From assembly GCA_019636655.1 (NCBI GenBank), contig JAHBXB010000008.1:1-64000 (forward strand): a stretch of DNA of 64,000 nucleotides. The letters run 5' to 3'. The notes under the pieces were generated by a model. The model ran no database searches. It saw nothing but the letters and a program-made list of their open reading frames with translations, and was not told where the DNA came from. The stretch is from Phycisphaeraceae bacterium (GTDB taxonomy: Bacteria > Planctomycetota > Phycisphaerae > Phycisphaerales > UBA1924). Positions 1-61,814 of the stretch are shown here, in pieces; positions within the stretch are counted from its first letter, which is position 1, and every line of letters starts with the position of its first letter. Position numbers and translations under genes: made by a program.

Positions 1-480
1 ACGTCGATCGACTACGTGCACGCGTTCCACGTGGTGGACATCAACCGCGACGGGAAGCTGGACATCGTGTTCGCCGAGATGGCGCAGTCGACCCGCAAGC
101 GGGTGGGGATCTACGCGGGCGACGGGACGGGCGGCTCGTGGACGCTGCAGGTGATCGCGACGACCGGCTCGCACAACATCCGCCTGGGCGACCTGGGCCG
201 CGACGGCGACCTGGACATCCTGGGCGTGAACTGGCAGGGGCCCCCGGTCGAGATCTGGATCAACCGCCTGGACCCCGTGGTCTGCCACGGCGACTGGGAC
301 CAGAGCGGGAGTGTTGATACCTCTGATGTGGCGATCTATGTCGTTGCCTGGCTTGATTCCATCTCGGCCGGATCAGACGAGGCAGACATGGATGGCGATG
401 GCGACGTGACGCCGTCAGATCTAGCCATCTTCATCGGAATCTGGCACGATGATCTGGCGGGGCAATGCGGCTCTTCGTGA
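1..480 (+). CDS. FG-GAP/VCBS-repeat protein with C-terminal dockerin-like domain (5' truncated by window)
   Basis: The frame is open from base 1, so the N-terminus lies outside the window. Residues 1-95 carry FG-GAP/VCBS-type calcium loops (DINRDGKLD, DLGRDGDLD), typical of secreted beta-propellers. The last 60 residues hold two EF-hand-like repeats (DWDQSGSVDTSD and DMDGDGDVTPSD) between two cysteines, the dockerin-like tail common on planctomycete exported proteins. The role is probably an extracellular or surface-bound propeller; no enzymatic motif is visible. The gene ends 20 bp before the stop of the convergent efflux lipoprotein gene. Codon use changes sharply inside the gene: all 103 codons up to base 309 end in G or C, whereas 22 of the following 56 end in A or T. 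Confidence 0.85.
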   Translation, partial: TSIDYVHAFHVVDINRDGKLDIVFAEMAQSTRKRVGIYAGDGTGGSWTLQVIATTGSHNIRLGDLGRDGDLDILGVNWQGPPVEIWINRLDPVVCHGDWDQSGSVDTSDVAIYVVAWLDSISAGSDEADMDGDGDVTPSDLAIFIGIWHDDLAGQCGSS

Positions 481-499: not shown

Positions 500-1987
500 C
501 TACTGCTGGTCGCCGGGTGCGGCCTTCGACGGTTCGTCCTTGGGCCGCTGATCGGGCGGCAGCGGGAGCGGTTCGGTCGTGCCCCATTCCTCGGTCGTCA
601 GCCTCCACCCTCCGCCCAGCGACTTGTAGAGGTTGACGACGGCAATAAGCTGATCCAGCCGAGTACGGGCGAGATCGAGCTGCTCGGGGAACAGTTGCTG
701 CTGAGCCTCCAGCACCTCGTAGTAGGAGGACTTTCCGGCGACGTACCGCTGCGTCGACACCTTGACGGCTTCCTGATACGCCCGGACCGATCGTTCTCGC
801 TCTCTGCGCACATCCACGAGCTTCTCGCGGCTGATCAGGGACGTAGACACCTCCTGCAGCGCATTGAGCACCGTCAACTCGTACTCGAGCGCTGACTGCT
901 GCCAGGCCCCGCGGGCCTGCTGCAGTTGTCCCTCGAGAAGGCCGGCGGTGAAGATCGGTCCCGTGGCGGAGGCTGCGACCGACCACGCATTGGTGGCGCC
1001 ACCGGTGATGGCGCCAAGCTCGGGGCTTACCTTTCCGAGGAAAGCCGTTAGCCCGATCTGTGGGAAGTAGTTTCCGATTGCGACGCCGATCCGCGCGTTG
1101 GCCGCTCGCAGGCTCTGCTCCGCCGCTCGCACGTCTGGTCGACGCGCCAGCAGATCTGCCGGAAGGCCCGCCGGGACCTCGGGCGGGACCAGGGAATCGC
1201 TCAGCGCTATTGGGCGTTCGATAGCCCCGGGTGGACGGCCCAGGAGCACGCTCAGCTGGTTCTCGCGAAATGCAATCGTGCGTTGGAGACTAGGGATTGT
1301 TGCCGCGGCGCTCGCCAAGGCGGCTTCGGCTCGCGAGGTTTCAAGCTTCGAGGCGGTCCCGCCGCGAAGCCGGGCCTCAAATATGCGAAGGCTCTCGCCA
1401 AACGACTCAGTGGTGGCCTGGCCAATCTGGACTTCCAGGTCCAGTTCAAGCAACTCGAAATAGGTCCGGGCTACTTCACTGACCAGCGACAGGAGCACCG
1501 CACGCCGGGCCTCTTCCGTTGCGAGCAACTCCGCGAGGTCGGCTTCGTTGAGCCGCCGGATCCTGCCCCACACGTCGAGTTCCCAGGCGGCATTAAGCAC
1601 GCCGGCAAACGGCGAGCTGCTGGAGCCATTGGTAACCGACGGCGAACCGAGGAACTCGTTCCGGCCGCTGCTGACCGCGGCGCCGTAACCAATCGAGGGG
1701 TAAAGCTCCGATCGCGACTGAGCCGCGATCGCCCTGGCCTGTTCGATTCGAGCGATGGCGATTCGAAGGTCGTAGTTATTGCTGATCGCGGTGCCGATGA
1801 GATCCTGGAGCGTCGGATCCTGATACACCTCCCACCACGGAAGGTCCGCGATTGACGCGGCGTCGCCCTGAGCCGAGTCGCCCCGGTAGCCAGGCGGTGT
1901 GGTGATCTCAGGCCGTTCATAGTCCGGCCCAACCAGGCAGCCCTGGAGCACAAGCACCGCGAGGATAAGGAAAGCAGCCCGAGCCAT
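500..1987 (-). CDS. RND efflux outer-membrane lipoprotein (NodT/OprM family)
   Basis: A TolC/OprM-type channel that carries substrates from an RND pump through the outer membrane. The ATG at 1987 is chosen because it gives a lipoprotein signal with lipobox LQGC (Cys17) followed by GPDYERP, the classic N-terminus of NodT-family proteins. The longer upstream frame overlaps the pump gene and looks non-coding. At 495 residues the length is normal. Two OEP repeats are visible, around residues 60-250 (LPWWEVYQDPTLQDLI onward) and 270-460 (LLARRPDVRAAEQ onward). The start codon shares one base with the pump stop (TGATG), implying translational coupling. It is the last gene of a three-gene operon reading from 6394. 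Confidence 0.93.
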   Translation of the reverse strand: MARAAFLILAVLVLQGCLVGPDYERPEITTPPGYRGDSAQGDAASIADLPWWEVYQDPTLQDLIGTAISNNYDLRIAIARIEQARAIAAQSRSELYPSIGYGAAVSSGRNEFLGSPSVTNGSSSSPFAGVLNAAWELDVWGRIRRLNEADLAELLATEEARRAVLLSLVSEVARTYFELLELDLEVQIGQATTESFGESLRIFEARLRGGTASKLETSRAEAALASAAATIPSLQRTIAFRENQLSVLLGRPPGAIERPIALSDSLVPPEVPAGLPADLLARRPDVRAAEQSLRAANARIGVAIGNYFPQIGLTAFLGKVSPELGAITGGATNAWSVAASATGPIFTAGLLEGQLQQARGAWQQSALEYELTVLNALQEVSTSLISREKLVDVRRERERSVRAYQEAVKVSTQRYVAGKSSYYEVLEAQQQLFPEQLDLARTRLDQLIAVVNLYKSLGGGWRLTTEEWGTTEPLPLPPDQRPKDEPSKAAPGDQQ

Positions 1988-4900
1988 CAGTGCCCTCCTT
2001 CGGAGGCGGGCACGCCGGTGTCGCCCGCGGTGGCGGCAGGGCCGGGCTTGGCACCGCGGAGACGCTCGATGACATAGAACAGAGCCGGAATGATCAGGAT
2101 GGCGAGCATCGTCGCGGCGAGCATGCCGCCGATGACAACGGTCCCCATGACCCGCCTTGAAATGCCTCCGGCCCCGGATGCGATAGCCAGCGGGACGCAC
2201 CCGAGAATGAACGCGAATGAGGTCATCAGGATCGGACGCAGGCGAAGGCGGGCTCCTTCAAGTGCTGCCTCGAGCGGCGGTTTGCCCGTCTCAAGCTGCA
2301 GCTTTGCAAACTCGACGATGAGGATCGCGTTCTTTGCGGCAAGGCCGATCAGCATGACCAGGCCGATCTGGGCGTAAATGTTGTTCTCCATAACCCGAAG
2401 CCACAGCGCCAGGAAGGCGCCCGCAACCGCGATGGGGGTGGACAGCAGCACGCTGAACGGAAGCGACCACGACTCGTACAGGCCTGCAAGGATCAGGAAC
2501 ACGAACAGGAGCGAAAGTCCAAAGATCGCCGATGCGGGCACACCCTCCTGCGCCTGCTTTTCCTGGTACGACATCCCCATGTACCCGAGCGCCATGTTCG
2601 GTGGCATGTGCTCCGCGAAGACCTCCTGGAGGGCCTTCATGGCCTGGGCGCTGCTGGTTCCCGGAGCGGCCGTCGCGTTGAACTGGACCGAGCGGTGCAG
2701 GTTGTACCGCATGGTGAACTCCGGCCCCTCGGTCCGTTTCACATCGGTCACGGCCGAGAGCGGCACGCCCTCCCCGACCGAGTTCCGCACGTAGAACTGG
2801 CCCATCATCCGGGCATCGGTGCGGAACGCCCCCTCCGCCTGGACGTACACCTGCCACTGGCGGCCGAACCGATTGAAGAAGTTGACGAACGATCCGCCCA
2901 TGAAGGCCTGCATCGTCGTGTACACATCCGCGAGTTCGACGCCTTGCTTGAGCACCTTGTCGCGGTCGACCTCCGCATAGACCTGCGGAACTTTCAGCAG
3001 CGCGGTCGTCGCTACGTTGGCCAGTTCCGGTCGCGTCGAGGCCTTTTCTATGAACTTCGCCGCGGCAGACGCAAGGAAATCGACATCGCGGCCGGCCAGG
3101 TCCTCAAGGACAAAGGACACGCCGCCCGCCGTTCCGATCCCGGGGATCGCGGGCGGCGAGAACGCGAATCCGATACACTCCTTCTGGCCTCCGATGGCAC
3201 GGCTGATCTTTGCCTTGATCACCTCGTATTGAAGGTCAGGTGATTTGCGCTCGGACCACGGTTCGAGTGTGATGAAGAAAAACCCCGAGTACGTGTTGAA
3301 TACATTAGAGAGCAGCGAGAAGCCAGCGATGCTGATGACGTGCTTGACGCCCGGGATTGCGGCGATGGCCTTTTCGGCGTCGCCAACAACCTCGTCTGTC
3401 CGTTGCAGGCTTGCGGCGTTGGGGAGTTGCAGCGCGGCGTAGACATAACCCTGATCCTCTTCCGGCAGGAAGCTCGAAGGCGTGCGTGCCGCGAAGAAGC
3501 TCGCCGAGTACACCGCCAGGCCCAGGAATAGGATCGTGATGATGAACTTCCGCGCGAACACGCGGCAAATGGTGACATATCCATTCGTGCTCGTCGTGAA
3601 GACGCGGTTGAACCCGCGGAAGAACGCACCAAGCGGCCCACGGCTCTCCTTCTTCGGTCGAAGCAGCATCGACGCCAGGGCCGGGCTTAGCGAGAGCGCG
3701 TTGAAGGCGGAGATGATGACCGAGATCGCGATGGTCACCGCGAACTGCTGGTACAGACTCCCGGTGATCCCCGGGATAAACACTGTCGGGAGAAACACCG
3801 CCGCGAGAATGATGGCGATCGCGATGACCGGCCCGGAGACCTCTTCCATTGCCTTTAGCGAAGCCTCACGCGGTGTGAGCCCGTGTTCGATGTGATGCTC
3901 GACAGCCTCAACGACGACAATCGCATCGTCTACGACCAGGCCGATGGCGAGCACCATCCCGAACAAAGACAATGTGTTGATCGAGAACCCGAGAATCGGG
4001 AAGACCGCAAAAGTACCGATGAGCGAGACCGGCACCGCGAGCAGGGGGATCAGGGTGGCACGCCAACCCTGTAGGAAGATGAATACCACGAGGATGACCA
4101 GCACCAGCGCCTCGATCAACGTGTGCTCGATCTCCTTCATCCCCTCGGTCACCGCAAGCGTCGTATCGAGGCTCACTTCGTAAGCGATATCGGGCGGGAA
4201 GCGATCGGCCAGCTGGGCCATCAGCTCCCTCGCCTGCTTGGCGGCTTCGACGGCATTCGAACCGGGGAGCTGATAGAGAGCAATCGCTGCCGCCGGCTTT
4301 CCATCGAATCGCGACGTCTGGTTGTACGTCTGTGTTCCCAACTCGATGCGCGCCACATCCGCCAATCGCACCAGCGAACCGTCGGCATTGGCACGAACCA
4401 CAATCTGGCCGAACTCCTCCTCCGATTGAAGCCGCCCCTGGGCCCTCACGGAGTACGTGAACTCCTGCCCCGTCGGGACCGGCTCGCCGCCGATCTGGCC
4501 CGCGGGATTCACGGTGTTCTGCTGCTTGATCGCGCGGACGATTTCGGGAATTGTGATGTCGAGTTTGGCGAGCTGATCGGGAAGCACCCAGACCCGCATC
4601 GCGTACTGCGCGGCACCGAAGACCTGCACCTGGGAGATCCCCGGGACGCGGGTCATGGCATCGTTGATATTGATGTACGAGTAGTTGGCCAGGAACTGCG
4701 AGTCGTACGTTCCGTTCGGCGAATACAGACTGAAGAGCATCAGCGGCGAAGTGGTCGATTTGATGACCGTAACGCCCTGGTTGATCACGTCGGCCGGCAA
4801 CTGGCTGTTGGCCTGCTGCACGCGCATCTGGGACAGGATCTGGTCGGTGTCGGCGTTCGTGCCGAGGCGAAAGTCGACGTACATCCTCAGCATGCCGCTG

Positions 4901-5151
4901 TTCATGTTGAGCGAGTACATGTAGGTCATGTTGTCCACGCCGCTCATCTGTTGCTCGATGGGCGTGGCGACCGACTGCTCAACCGTGAGGGCATCAGCCC
5001 CCGGGTAAGTCGTGTTGATGTAGATCTCGGGCGGAACGATGTTGGGGAACTGTGCGACAGGGAGCCTCGCCATCGAAACGAGACCGACGATCACCATGAT
5101 GATCGAGATCACGATCGCAACGATCGGGCGGTTGATGAAGAACTTGGCCAT
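1987..5151 (-). CDS. RND multidrug efflux pump, HAE1 family (AcrB/MexB-like)
   Basis: A proton-driven inner-membrane pump for drugs or hydrophobic compounds. Its 1054 residues match AcrB-family length. The N-terminus (MAKFFINRPIVAIVIS) is the family signature. Near residue 405 the TM4 motif GLVVDDAIVVVE keeps both proton-relay aspartates, and near residue 940 GLAAKNAILIVEFA keeps the TM10 lysine. Both large periplasmic porter/docking halves are present. The gene lies between the adaptor gene (67 bp upstream) and the outer-membrane lipoprotein gene (1-bp overlap), so all three parts are co-transcribed. No regulator gene adjoins the operon inside the window. The substrate cannot be inferred. 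Confidence 0.96.
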   Translation of the reverse strand: MAKFFINRPIVAIVISIIMVIVGLVSMARLPVAQFPNIVPPEIYINTTYPGADALTVEQSVATPIEQQMSGVDNMTYMYSLNMNSGMLRMYVDFRLGTNADTDQILSQMRVQQANSQLPADVINQGVTVIKSTTSPLMLFSLYSPNGTYDSQFLANYSYININDAMTRVPGISQVQVFGAAQYAMRVWVLPDQLAKLDITIPEIVRAIKQQNTVNPAGQIGGEPVPTGQEFTYSVRAQGRLQSEEEFGQIVVRANADGSLVRLADVARIELGTQTYNQTSRFDGKPAAAIALYQLPGSNAVEAAKQARELMAQLADRFPPDIAYEVSLDTTLAVTEGMKEIEHTLIEALVLVILVVFIFLQGWRATLIPLLAVPVSLIGTFAVFPILGFSINTLSLFGMVLAIGLVVDDAIVVVEAVEHHIEHGLTPREASLKAMEEVSGPVIAIAIILAAVFLPTVFIPGITGSLYQQFAVTIAISVIISAFNALSLSPALASMLLRPKKESRGPLGAFFRGFNRVFTTSTNGYVTICRVFARKFIITILFLGLAVYSASFFAARTPSSFLPEEDQGYVYAALQLPNAASLQRTDEVVGDAEKAIAAIPGVKHVISIAGFSLLSNVFNTYSGFFFITLEPWSERKSPDLQYEVIKAKISRAIGGQKECIGFAFSPPAIPGIGTAGGVSFVLEDLAGRDVDFLASAAAKFIEKASTRPELANVATTALLKVPQVYAEVDRDKVLKQGVELADVYTTMQAFMGGSFVNFFNRFGRQWQVYVQAEGAFRTDARMMGQFYVRNSVGEGVPLSAVTDVKRTEGPEFTMRYNLHRSVQFNATAAPGTSSAQAMKALQEVFAEHMPPNMALGYMGMSYQEKQAQEGVPASAIFGLSLLFVFLILAGLYESWSLPFSVLLSTPIAVAGAFLALWLRVMENNIYAQIGLVMLIGLAAKNAILIVEFAKLQLETGKPPLEAALEGARLRLRPILMTSFAFILGCVPLAIASGAGGISRRVMGTVVIGGMLAATMLAILIIPALFYVIERLRGAKPGPAATAGDTGVPASEGGH

Positions 5152-5218
5152 GCTCGTCCAGGGTAAGGGAATGGCGGGCCGCGAGCGCCGCCGGAAAGTT
5201 CACGCCCGCGCCGCTCGG

Positions 5219-6394
5219 CTAGCCATTTGCCGCTGTGTTCAGTGGCTTGGAAGGTTCGTACGGCTGCGTCTTGACGATCGTCCCGTCTCGCACCCTCTGA
5301 AGACCCTCAACGACCACCGTTTCGCCGGGCTTCAGTCCGGATTCGATGACCCAGTCGGAGCCGGTGCGGTCCCCCACCTTGACAGGCCGGATGCTGACCT
5401 TGTCGCCCTCGCCGACGACCGTGACGAAGTAGGCCCCTTGGGTTTCATTGACGGCCCGCTGCGGCACGACGATCGCGTCCTTTTTCATATTGATCACCGC
5501 GCGAATCCGGCCAAACTGACCAGGGCGGAGCAGCGACGTCGGGTTCGGGAACTCAGCCGCGATCGTCAGCGACCCGGTGCGGACGTTCACCTGGCGGTCG
5601 ATGTAGAGGAACTTCCCCTTTTGGGGGTAGACCTGGCCGGTCGACAGGATCAACTCGAACTCCAGGCTCGATGCCGCGGCGTCGTCGCGGGTCGATACGT
5701 CCGGGTGTCGTCCCTTCCACTCCAAGTAGGCCTGTTCGCTGACGCTGAAATACGCCTTGATCGGCTCGAGGGTCGAGACCACTGTGAGGGGGCCGGTCGA
5801 GGGGCCCACGAGGTCGCCGATCTGCGCGGTCGCCGTGCCGGCAACGCCGGAAATCAGCGAAGTGACCTTCGTAAAGCCGAGGTTGTACGCGGCCTGATCG
5901 ACCGCTGCTTGACCCGCCGCGACCTGAGCCTCCGCCGCGAGCTTCGCTTGAATGGCGTCGTCGAGTTCCTGCTGGCTGATCGCATTCTCGGCCGCGAGCG
6001 GTGTGTACCGGTTGACGTCAATCGTCGCCTTGCCAAGCTCGGCCTTTGCTCGCGCGAGGTTGCCCTTGGCCTGATCAAGCGCGGCGATGAACGGTCGATC
6101 GTCGATCTCGAACAGCACCTGGTCCTTCGCAACCAGATCGCCCTCAAGGTACGTCTGCTTCACAAGATACCCGGTGACCTGGGCTCGGATCGTCGCGTTC
6201 ACGATTCCATCGAGGGTCGCGATCCACTCACCGTAGATGGGCACATCCCGCGGCTCGGTCTTGATGACAGACACTTGAGGTACGGGTGGCGGCGGTGGCT
6301 CTGGTTTGCTGAAGAACCGCTCGCACGCGGCCAGACCGCAAAGGACCGTCGTCGTCGTCACGGCCCAAAGGAGTCGGGGAGTTGGCTTGTTCAC
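5219..6394 (-). CDS. RND efflux periplasmic adaptor (AcrA/MexA-like lipoprotein)
   Basis: The membrane-fusion protein that links the pump to the outer-membrane channel. A lipoprotein signal ends in LAAC (Cys24), and a proline-rich linker follows. Then come the first beta-strand/lipoyl half (around residues 50-95), an alpha-helical hairpin with an alanine-rich coiled coil (around 100-165), the second lipoyl half with ISGVAGTA, and the beta-barrel and membrane-proximal domains ending with GLQRVRDG. GTG at 6394 is preferred over TTG at 6397: a GGAG sits 8 bases before the GTG but only 5 before the TTG. It is the first gene of the efflux operon. The upstream 800 bp contain no intact gene. Confidence 0.93.
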   Translation of the reverse strand: MNKPTPRLLWAVTTTTVLCGLAACERFFSKPEPPPPPVPQVSVIKTEPRDVPIYGEWIATLDGIVNATIRAQVTGYLVKQTYLEGDLVAKDQVLFEIDDRPFIAALDQAKGNLARAKAELGKATIDVNRYTPLAAENAISQQELDDAIQAKLAAEAQVAAGQAAVDQAAYNLGFTKVTSLISGVAGTATAQIGDLVGPSTGPLTVVSTLEPIKAYFSVSEQAYLEWKGRHPDVSTRDDAAASSLEFELILSTGQVYPQKGKFLYIDRQVNVRTGSLTIAAEFPNPTSLLRPGQFGRIRAVINMKKDAIVVPQRAVNETQGAYFVTVVGEGDKVSIRPVKVGDRTGSDWVIESGLKPGETVVVEGLQRVRDGTIVKTQPYEPSKPLNTAANG

Positions 6395-6397
6395 CAA

Positions 6398-11935: not shown

Positions 11936-14314
11936 ATGACGACGTTGGTTTCTTCGGTCGGGGCTTGGATCAAGCCTCTGGGTGCAGCGGGTTGCCTTGC
12001 CGCTCTTGCCGCGACTCCGCTCCACGCCGACCCAGACTGGATGAAACTCAAGGACCGGCGGCCTCCTGTCCAGGCCGCGGGCTCGAAAGGGGACGCCAAG
12101 GGCGTTGACCCGTTCTCGAACACGATCATCGGGTTCCCGGCCCAGGGGATGGTCTTGCAGTCCTGGCTCCCGCTGAATCAGTTCTCGGGCATCCAGGTCA
12201 CGGCTGCCGACTGCTGGGGGTATGTGTCCGCCTCCGGCCGCGAGTATGCCATTCTGGGCCTGCGGCGCGGCACAGCGTTCATCGAGGTCACTGACCCGGT
12301 CAACCCGGTGGTTGTCGGCTACATCGCCGGGGCGGACTCGCTCTGGCACGACAGCACCGTCATCGGCGACTACGCCTACCTCGTCAGCGACCAATCCGGC
12401 AACGGCGTTCAGGTCGTCGATCTGCGTCAGATCGATAACGGCACGGTCACGCTCGCGGCGACCCGTTCTCCGAGCGGCCTGAGCACGGTCCACACCATCG
12501 TTTCGAATCCGGCCTCCGGGTTTCTCTACCTGTGCGGCACCAACATCAACAACGGCGGTCTGACGGCGATGAGGACCACCTCGCCGGGCAGCGCCACCAA
12601 CCCGACGATCGCGGGCGCATGGACGACACGGTACGTACACGAGGCCCAGGTGGTGACCTACACCACCGGCCCCTATGCGGGCCGCGAGATCGCCTTCTGC
12701 TTCACCGGCGGCCCGTACAACGGGAACAACCAGACGGGCCTCGACATCGTCGATGTCACCAACAAGTCCAACATGTTCACCGTCGGCAGCCTCGCCTATC
12801 CAGGCGTTCGCTTCTGCCACCAGGGATGGCTCAGCGACGACAAGCGATACCTCTACATCAACGACGAACTCGACGAGCAGCTCGGCTCGGTCCCGGTGAT
12901 GACCACCCGAGTGATCGACGTCTCCAACCTCTCCGCACCCACCGTCGCGGCGACCTTTTCGAACGGAAAGCCCTCGGTTGACCACAACCTGTACGTCAAG
13001 GGCAACATGATCTTCGAGGGGAACTACCGGAGTGGCCTCCGCGTCTTTGACGCCACAAACCCCCTCGCTCCCGTCGAGGTTGCCTACTTCGACACGTTCC
13101 CCGAGAACGACTACGCGAACTACAACGGCGTCTGGGGCAACTACCCGTTCTTTCCGAGCGGCACCATCGCCATCTCCGATATCGAGCGCGGCTTGTTCCT
13201 TCTGCGTATGGACCCGGACACGGTCACCATGACCTACCCGAACGGCCAGCCGGATACCGTCCAGCCGACCGTCCCCGCAGAGGTCATCGTTCAGATCAAC
13301 ACGACCGGTGCCCAGATCGATGATTCTTCGGTTGCGCTCATGGCCAGCATCGACGGGGGCCCCTACACCCCCCGTGGCATGATCCCCATTGGCGGCGCCA
13401 GGTACCGCGGCACGCTCCCACCCGCCACGTGCGGCGCTTCGATCCGCTACTACATCCGCGCCAAGACGACGAGCGGAACCGGCTTCCTCAGCCCGCCGGC
13501 GGCCCCCCAGGACAACTTCTTCGCCCGCGCAGCGAGCACCACCACCACGCTCTTCTCTGACGACATGGAGACCGATCAGGGGTGGACCGTCGGCGATTTC
13601 ACCTCGGGCGGGTCGATCGACACCGCCACCGCCGGCATCTGGAACCGCATGCGCCCGCAGGCCACCTCGGCCCAGCCAGGCGACGACCACACCCAGACGG
13701 GGGCGCACCGCGCGTGGGTCACCGACGGCAACGCCGGCCCCAACGACTCCGCTAACGACGTCTCGGGCGGCAAGACCACCCTCATGTCGCCACTCCTGAA
13801 TCTCACTGGCCGCCCGAATGCTCGCGTCGGCTACTGGCGATGGTATTCGAACGCCTTCGGCTCCCTGGGCACCGGAGGCACGCAGCGATTCACCGTCTCG
13901 GTGACAAACAACAACGGCGCCTCGTGGACCAATGCCGAGGTCGTCGGCCCGTCGGGTGGCCAGACGGTCGGTGGGTGGTTCTACAGCGAGTTCCGAGTCG
14001 GCGACTTCTTCCCGCTTTCTGCCAACGTCCGGGTCCGTTTTGTCGCGGAGAACCAACTCGCCGGCGCGCTCGTCGAGGCGTGTGTCGATGACGTCGTCGT
14101 CATGGCGTTCGGCTGCGCCCCGGTCTGCCGGGCCGACCGGGATGGCAACGGACTCGTGGAGCCGGCGGACATCGCCCGGTTTGTCAGCGAGTGGTTGTCC
14201 GACGTTCAGAACAACACCTTTGTCGCTGACTTCAACGGTCTCGACGGCGTCACACCGAGCGATATTGCCGAGTTTGTCGGGGTGTGGTTCGGCGCTCTCA
14301 GCGGCGGCTGCTGA
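11936..14314 (+). CDS. Choice-of-anchor B family protein with C-terminal dockerin-like domain
   Basis: A large exported protein of 792 residues. A signal peptide (about residues 1-32, ending TPLHAD) precedes a region of LVIVD-like propeller repeats (for example FIEVTDPVNPVVVGYI, LDIVDVTNKSNMFTVG and LRVFDATNPLAPVEVAYFDT) that defines choice-of-anchor B proteins. Residues 430-540 look like an Ig-like spacer, and about 545-735 resemble a jelly-roll/MAM-like sheet (DDMETDQGWTVGDF). The last 60 residues hold two dockerin-like calcium loops (DRDGNGLVEPADIA and DFNGLDGVTPSDIAEF) between cysteines. The ATG is preceded by AGAGGT. Role is likely cell-surface or extracellular; no catalytic motif was seen. 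Confidence 0.88.
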   Translation: MTTLVSSVGAWIKPLGAAGCLAALAATPLHADPDWMKLKDRRPPVQAAGSKGDAKGVDPFSNTIIGFPAQGMVLQSWLPLNQFSGIQVTAADCWGYVSASGREYAILGLRRGTAFIEVTDPVNPVVVGYIAGADSLWHDSTVIGDYAYLVSDQSGNGVQVVDLRQIDNGTVTLAATRSPSGLSTVHTIVSNPASGFLYLCGTNINNGGLTAMRTTSPGSATNPTIAGAWTTRYVHEAQVVTYTTGPYAGREIAFCFTGGPYNGNNQTGLDIVDVTNKSNMFTVGSLAYPGVRFCHQGWLSDDKRYLYINDELDEQLGSVPVMTTRVIDVSNLSAPTVAATFSNGKPSVDHNLYVKGNMIFEGNYRSGLRVFDATNPLAPVEVAYFDTFPENDYANYNGVWGNYPFFPSGTIAISDIERGLFLLRMDPDTVTMTYPNGQPDTVQPTVPAEVIVQINTTGAQIDDSSVALMASIDGGPYTPRGMIPIGGARYRGTLPPATCGASIRYYIRAKTTSGTGFLSPPAAPQDNFFARAASTTTTLFSDDMETDQGWTVGDFTSGGSIDTATAGIWNRMRPQATSAQPGDDHTQTGAHRAWVTDGNAGPNDSANDVSGGKTTLMSPLLNLTGRPNARVGYWRWYSNAFGSLGTGGTQRFTVSVTNNNGASWTNAEVVGPSGGQTVGGWFYSEFRVGDFFPLSANVRVRFVAENQLAGALVEACVDDVVVMAFGCAPVCRADRDGNGLVEPADIARFVSEWLSDVQNNTFVADFNGLDGVTPSDIAEFVGVWFGALSGGC

Positions 14315-59613: not shown

Positions 59614-59617
<4 letters not shown>
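58745..59617 (-). CDS. Alpha/beta hydrolase lipoprotein, paralogue B
   Basis: A 290-residue lipoprotein hydrolase with lipobox LGAC (about residue 20). It has PVVVIGGIYDPGWVAANCRK, the nucleophile elbow VDVVAFSLGGLAARYSAIPR, LRIARLFTIASPHRGADLVS, and LLDEALPNAEYELFAYVRLG, matching paralogue A at 56504 in sequence and order. Residues such as GSWTIDGYRDRIIDLVETSF suggest a lid. The GTG start overlaps the ispG stop (GTGA), so it is the third gene of the WalJ-like, ispG, hydrolase operon. Its stop overlaps the TraB-like gene. It probably acts at the outer or inner membrane surface. Confidence 0.85.
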
Positions 59618-60918
<1,301 letters not shown>

Positions 60919-60959
60919 GCGGCCAGATGGTAGGCCGGGAGCCCCGCCGCTCATCCCCT

Positions 60960-61814
60960 TCAAACGCCGACGCGGACGCCGACCGGGTCGCCCACGCCCG
61001 CCGGAGCGGGCGCTCCAACTGCCACCCACCCGGTCGGCTCAAACTGGGAGGTCACGGTCAGCCCATACGCCGCGCCCTCGTGCAGCCCCCGTGCCAGCGC
61101 GGGATCGTTGCACTCCCGCGACAGGTGCAGCAGCACCACGTGCGAGGCCGGGCTCACCTGCGCCACCGCGTCCCTCGCCTCCTGGTTGCTCAGGTGCCCG
61201 CTGCCCCCCATGATCCGCCGCTGCAACTGCAACGGCCGGCCCGAGGACTCCTGCATCACCGGGCAGTAGTTCGACTCGATCGCGAGCACATCCACCCCGC
61301 GCAGGTGCTGCGCCAGCGCCGGCGTGAACCGGCCCAGGTCCGTCGCAAACCCGAGCGAGCCGCCGAGCCCCTCGAACTCAAACCGAAGCACGCTTGTTCC
61401 CGACTGGTCGTGCGACCCCATCGCGACCCGCACCAGCGTCCCATCGCGCAGTCTGCAACCCTCTTCGAACGATTCCGCCCTCACCCCGAACAGCCCGAAC
61501 ATCCCGCGCGCACCGGGCGATTCGCTGTGCCGCCGGTGCAGCCGCAGCGTCGCGTGCCGTGGCAGCAGCCCGACCCACGAGTGGTAGAAGTGGTCCGAGT
61601 CCAGGTGCGTCAGGATCACATCATCGATCTGGTGAAACCCGAGCCCCAGCCCCGCCAGCAGCCTGTTGGTCCGCCGCGGCGAGAGGCCCACGTCGATCAG
61701 GCACAGCCTCCTCACCCCGCCCCGCACGATCGACACCACCGAGCAGTTCCCGCCGGATCCGCTCGCGAGCACGCACAACCAGACGCCATCCGTGAGATCC
61801 ATCGGAACCAGCAT
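60960..61814 (-). CDS. Metallo-beta-lactamase-fold protein, WalJ/YycJ-like
   Basis: A 284-residue hydrolase of the YycJ-like group. It opens CVLASGSGGNCSVVSI and continues LIDVGLSPRRTNRLLA. The metal-binding signature reads LTHLDSDHFYHSW: where the family has HxHxDH, Asp replaces the second His. MGSHDQSGTS, GFATDLGRF, ESNYCPVMQ (normally ESNHD), GHLSNQEA and LLHLSRECNDP follow. Two metal-site residues thus differ. ATG at 61814 is used; ATG 61802 is possible. It is the first gene before ispG. Nucleic-acid processing is a family-based guess. Confidence 0.85.
   Translation of the reverse strand: MLVPMDLTDGVWLCVLASGSGGNCSVVSIVRGGVRRLCLIDVGLSPRRTNRLLAGLGLGFHQIDDVILTHLDSDHFYHSWVGLLPRHATLRLHRRHSESPGARGMFGLFGVRAESFEEGCRLRDGTLVRVAMGSHDQSGTSVLRFEFEGLGGSLGFATDLGRFTPALAQHLRGVDVLAIESNYCPVMQESSGRPLQLQRRIMGGSGHLSNQEARDAVAQVSPASHVVLLHLSRECNDPALARGLHEGAAYGLTVTSQFEPTGWVAVGAPAPAGVGDPVGVRVGV

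What the first reader, a model, noticed from the sequence alone, without database searches (positions are those of the whole stretch)
1..480. Abrupt third-base shift inside the first gene, at the dockerin boundary
All 103 codons up to base 309 end in G or C. From base 310 to the stop, 22 of 56 codons end in A or T. The switch falls inside the first dockerin calcium loop (near DQSGSVD), so the propeller and the dockerin tail have different compositional histories. Domain grafting, gene conversion with another dockerin gene, or an assembly join could each explain it.
Basis: seen in the sequence. Interest (0 to 1): 0.6.

Follow-up and report, generated by a model that had tools for sequence, protein, structure and literature searches.

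The report
Mosaic propeller-dockerin gene at contig edge
The sudden change in codon style inside this cut-off gene is real and rare for its genome, and most likely marks where a recently copied stretch of one secreted-protein gene meets the older tail of another, right beside a break in the assembly caused by that copying.

Summary
In detail: 0 of 103 codons end in A/T up to base 309, then 22 of 56 do. It is not chance. The gene's change-point score (26.7) exceeds all 1872 equal-length segments tested. In 99 dockerin-tailed genes of the same genome the dockerin and the preceding stretch have the same mean GC3 (0.86 vs 0.87); this gene (1.00 vs 0.58) is the extreme outlier.

The window starts at base 1 of a contig, so the gene is cut. 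It is the last part of a secreted FG-GAP/VCBS propeller plus one of this genome's own "GC-type" dockerins. Two other contig ends (C5 right, C7 left) stop inside signal-peptide genes at the same family's N-terminus (...VPFDHLPID). The ~740-bp core between is absent from the assembly. The simplest reading: two genes share a near-identical core that the assembler could not resolve.

Best explanation: a mosaic of a GC3-saturated propeller core, recently copied between paralogues, and an older dockerin tail. The switch lies inside the first calcium loop, not at the module boundary, which disfavours clean domain grafting. An assembly hybrid at the contig end is not excluded; reads would decide. Ordinary kind, modest interest.

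The parts
1..270 (+). C-terminal end of a secreted FG-GAP/VCBS propeller domain; gene cut by the contig's left edge; GC3 100%
   Evidence: PF13517 residues 13-74; aligned to homologues that end here; window is G000:C8:1-64000
280..477 (+). type I / GC-type dockerin tail (CHGDWDQSGSVD...GQCGSS)
   Evidence: PF00404 residues 96-144; NF041540 dockerin_GC below its cut-off; nearest matches are this genome's own dockerins
301..310 (+). composition switch: GC3 100% before, about 60% after; inside the first calcium loop DQSG|SVD
   Evidence: change-point profile and posterior
291..308 (+). 18 bases identical to another dockerin gene of the genome (L009), just before the switch
   Evidence: k-mer comparison with fetched loci
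500..6397 (-). convergent neighbour, not part of the mosaic: RND efflux operon (outer-membrane factor, permease, adaptor), GC3 0.75-0.81
   Evidence: NCBIfam matches TIGR01845, NF000282, TIGR01730; GC3

Best explanation
The gene encodes a secreted FG-GAP/VCBS propeller that ends in one of this genome's own GC-type dockerins, and it is a compositional mosaic. A propeller core with saturated GC3, including bases 1 to about 301-310, was recently copied (gene conversion or a short duplication) between two paralogues, and meets the recipient's older, mixed-GC3 dockerin tail inside the first calcium loop. The same event explains the contig end: the ~740-bp core exists in two near-identical copies behind different signal peptides and was left out of the assembly. 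Shown: the switch, its rarity, its position, the two in-register N-terminal contig ends, and the absence of the core. Inferred: that the core is nearly the same in both genes, that it was copied in vivo, and that the copied tract reaches base ~305.
For: Switch far outside the genome's range; located in the most conserved dockerin motif, not at the module joint; dockerin tail native to this genome; contig ends C5R and C7L carry two different signal peptides followed by the same VPFDHLPID start of the propeller family, in register and running off the edge; core found nowhere else in the assembly; homologues fix the missing length at about 245-250 codons; the 6-kb flanks at C5R and C8L have matching G+C (0.632 and 0.631), weakly suggesting that they are neighbours.
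Against: The sister C-terminal end and the core are not in the bin, so the copied tract is not seen. In-register contig ends in this assembly begin at a mismatch, which hints that the exact repeat ends before base 1, so the switch at ~305 need not be the end of the same tract. The low GC3 of the C5R signal peptide is ordinary for this genome and adds nothing. Everything lies within 310 bases of a contig edge.
Confidence: 0.5

Rival explanations
1. Assembly hybrid: at the edge of a two-copy repeat the assembler wrote bases 1-309 from one copy (or a mixed consensus) and the rest from the other; the mosaic does not exist in the cell.
For: The switch is 310 bases from a contig end; several ends of this assembly lie in paired repeats or homopolymers; two N-terminal ends but only one C-terminal end of the family are present.
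Against: The reading frame and dockerin motif run through the join without a flaw. No 20-mer of bases 1-480 is shared with any of the ~100 dockerin genes fetched, so they could not have caused a misjoin; the unseen sister copy still could.
Confidence: 0.27
2. Clean domain grafting: a propeller gene that lacked a dockerin gained one at the module joint, from a gene of different composition.
For: Most propeller relatives end where the dockerin begins here, and others carry different C-terminal modules, so the joint is a natural point of exchange.
Against: The switch lies 10-13 codons inside the dockerin; posterior for codon 92 or earlier 0.006. The tail is lower in GC3 than almost all dockerins of the genome, so no typical resident donor would give it.
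Confidence: 0.13
3. No recombination: ordinary variation in codon use, or a constraint on the tail, such as overlapping 3' ends of the two convergent genes.
For: One of 101 dockerin genes has a GC3 run of 150 codons, a few dockerins have GC3 of 0.50-0.71, and the neighbouring operon is somewhat low in GC3 (0.75-0.81).
Against: No coding segment of 1872 shows such a step. The tail is low even against its neighbours (P about 0.001). No terminator-like site lies in 1-900.
Confidence: 0.1

Closest known systems
Gene conversion between paralogues in one genome (general knowledge)
   Same: Abrupt internal change of composition inside a conserved motif; apparently near-identical core in genes with unlike 5' ends
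   Different: The second copy is not in the assembly, so the tract itself cannot be shown
GC-type dockerin domain-anchored proteins (NCBIfam NF041540)
   Same: Two-loop dockerin with a near-terminal cysteine at the end of a secreted protein; about 100 relatives in the genome
   Different: Scores 24.8 bits against a cut-off of 29; ends QCGSS instead of the commonest GC
FG-GAP/VCBS propeller proteins (Pfam PF13517)
   Same: FG-GAP_3 match above cut-off; 42-49% identity to full-length propellers in other families of the class
   Different: Most of those relatives have no C-terminal module; only the last part of this protein is visible

Membership tests
Dockerin type I (PF00404) | Pfam match above the curated cut-off, two calcium-loop repeats | tested here: met
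   31.1 bits vs 22.9; residues 96-144
GC-type dockerin (NCBIfam NF041540) | Score above the curated cut-off | tested here: not met
   24.8 bits vs 29
GC-type dockerin (NCBIfam NF041540) | Cysteine at or near the C-terminus (my reading of the family's name, not a curated rule) | tested here: met
   Ends QCGSS; 94 of 100 dockerins of the genome have a Cys in the last four residues, 54 end in GC
Cellulosomal dockerin | Cohesin partner in the same genome | tested here: not met
   No PF00963 match in the genome
FG-GAP_3 propeller (PF13517) | Pfam match above the curated cut-off | tested here: met
   40.2 bits vs 26.9; residues 13-74
Gene-conversion mosaic | Sharp internal change of composition beyond the genome's range | tested here: met
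   LLR 26.7 vs 99th percentile 8.4
Gene-conversion mosaic | A paralogue near-identical over the tract and divergent outside it | tested here: inconclusive
   Two N-terminal contig ends of the family point to a second copy, but the core is not assembled
Assembly hybrid | Depth step or clipped reads at the join | not testable with these tools
   No reads are held

The most novel reading that the evidence does not exclude
In a genome with about 100 dockerin-tailed secreted proteins, the conserved first calcium loop of the dockerin acts as a recurrent crossover point, so that secreted domains are shuffled onto resident tails by gene conversion; this gene would be a very recent product.
Probability: 0.08. 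Interest if true: 0.5.

Novelty: new member of a known kind. Interest (0 to 1): 0.3.

Why it matters
If the mosaic is real, it catches conversion between two secreted propeller genes soon after the event and shows that a dockerin tail can be joined inside its most conserved motif. If it is an assembly effect, it shows how two-copy repeats make false mosaics at contig ends in genomes rich in a repeated tail domain. Either way it warns against reading a composition shift at a contig edge as horizontal transfer.

Tried and rejected
Contaminating contig: rejected; C8 carries two further dockerin genes of the genome's own type, at 14123 and 70712, and this tail's nearest relatives are in the same genome.
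A general feature of dockerin tails: rejected; mean difference 0.010 over 99 genes, 53 of 99 in that direction, Wilcoxon P 0.31.
A second copy of bases 1-900 elsewhere in the genome: none.
A donor in other genomes: no close relative in the one protein scan of the 84,980-species collection; none in the other 162 genomes of the host family at E<=1e-14; only distant ones in samples of 397 class and 392 phylum genomes.
The exact 21-mer at the join in the same collection: none.
Terminator in the tail: none.
Synteny through the neighbouring efflux operon: no convincing dockerin gene beside it in the 29 relatives checked (one weak hit on the wrong side of the frame, L178).
rRNA operons as the cause of the contig ends: none found by Rfam in the outer 6 kb.
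Low GC3 of the C5R signal peptide as support for mosaicism: rejected as ordinary.
Literature: no held paper for 'GC-type dockerin', nor for dockerin + Planctomycetes + FG-GAP.
First attempts that failed: a scan that ignored locus strand, a wrong-frame reading of the outer-membrane factor in part and; corrected.

Full report
WHAT WAS CLAIMED.

THE OBSERVATION. It is exact. Codons 1-103 all end in G or C; 22 of the next 56 end in A or T; the stop is at 478-480. The frame is open from base 1 because the window begins at base 1 of contig C8, a 73.7-kb contig of an 8-contig, 3.66-Mb assembly (98% complete). The protein matches FG-GAP_3 (residues 13-74) and a type I dockerin (96-144) in Pfam, and the GC-type dockerin of NCBIfam at a sub-threshold score.

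IS IT MORE THAN CHANCE? The genome has about 100 dockerin-tailed genes. I fetched them and compared GC3 in the ~100 codons before the dockerin core with GC3 inside it. Over 99 genes the means are 0.870 and 0.859, with no direction (53 of 99). This gene is first in the ranking (97/97 vs 31/53; Fisher P 3.5e-12; next most extreme gene 4e-4). A change-point scan allowing any position gives a log-likelihood ratio of 26.7; in 1872 segments of equal length the 99th percentile is 8.4. The maximum is 17.5, near the 5' end of an ORF whose mechanical start looks too early; the next gene scores 10.4. Each half is also unusual alone.

WHERE EXACTLY? The likelihood interval is bases 301-310; the posterior for codon 95 or later is 0.985 and for codon 92 or earlier 0.006. 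In the alignment with propeller relatives the shared module ends at W-x-N, codons ~86-91. The switch is therefore inside the dockerin, in the first calcium loop, and not at the joint between modules. The 18 bases 291-308 just before it are identical to another dockerin gene of the genome (L009), but that gene's tail is only 44% identical in protein, so it is not the donor.

NATIVE OR FOREIGN? The tail is native: among 163 genomes of the host family, all but one of the non-self matches at E<=1e-11 are in this genome. The propeller family is rare in the host family: no other genome has it at E<=1e-14, and two of the 60 relatives first searched have weaker matches. The nearest relatives (42-49% identity) are in other families of the class, most of them without a dockerin. 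Relatives that do carry a C-terminal module (L144, L062, L063) have high GC3 across the joint.

THE CONTIG ENDS. Full-length relatives begin the mature protein, after a signal peptide, with a motif of the type VPFxxVxID, and the visible part of our gene starts about 245-250 residues later (counted on L144 and L145). Contig ends C5R and C7L both stop inside a gene that starts with a signal peptide and reads ...QSVPFDHLPID and ...QPVPFDHLPID, running off the edge. The two ends are in register: 20 identical bases, then divergence inward. A search with the full-length relative finds no core anywhere else in the assembly, only the C8 end and one weak paralogue. The simplest reading is that two genes with unlike signal peptides share a near-identical core of ~735-750 bp which the assembler could not place, and that C8 begins where one of them leaves it. 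Other ends of this assembly behave likewise: C1L/C4R, C3R/C5L and C3L/C8R are paired repeats; C1R and C2L overlap at a poly-C tract; C4L (sigma factor running into a poly-G tract) and C7R (probably its anti-sigma factor) look adjacent. The second C-terminal end is not in the bin.

MECHANISM. I think it most likely (0.5) that the core was recently copied between the two paralogues, and that the boundary of the copied block, or of an overlapping one, falls in the dockerin loop, leaving the recipient's mixed-GC3 tail. The main rival (0.27) is a hybrid made by the assembler at the same repeat. The tools hold no reads, so the two cannot be separated here. In-register ends in this assembly begin at a mismatch, which hints that the exactly repeated part ends before base 1; this weakens the claim that one conversion tract ends at 310. 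Clean grafting at the module joint (0.13) and plain codon variation (0.1) fit worse.

FUNCTION. From family knowledge and inference only: an exported propeller that binds an extracellular ligand or surface, held by a C-terminal dockerin-like module with a near-terminal cysteine. No cohesin was found in the genome, so a cellulosome-type assembly is unlikely.

VERDICT. Observation confirmed; interpretation partly supported; an ordinary kind of event (paralogue mosaic or contig-edge artefact) with a clear experimental test.

Noticed in passing
whole genome G000; in the window 286-477 and 14123-14314: About 100 secreted proteins end in a GC-type dockerin (94 of 100 with a Cys in the last four residues), yet the genome has no detectable cohesin; the partner or anchoring route is unclear.
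   Followed up: partly
contig ends C5R (L073), C7L (L076), C3R/C5L (L069, L072), C3L/C8R (L068, L078), C1L/C4R (L064, L071): Many contig ends lie in register inside paired gene copies, so several recent two-copy duplications may sit in the gaps of this genome.
   Followed up: partly
C1R/C2L (L065, L066), C4L (L070): Contigs break at poly-C/poly-G tracts of about 23-56 bases; C4L runs from a sigma-factor gene into a poly-proline frame, and C7R opens with what looks like its anti-sigma factor.
   Followed up: no
L062 (G028:C38): A relative of the propeller in the host family ends in repeats of the type TANDFQCFLNKFAAQDPYANCDGS, a different C-terminal module on the same propeller.
   Followed up: no
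window 59614-61029 (-): Second-largest third-base step in the window, near the 5' end of an ORF; probably a start called too far upstream.
   Followed up: no
window 500-6397 (-): RND efflux operon with lower GC3 (0.75-0.81); its outer-membrane factor is 51-56% identical to those of only two other genera of the family and 42% or less to the rest.
   Followed up: partly
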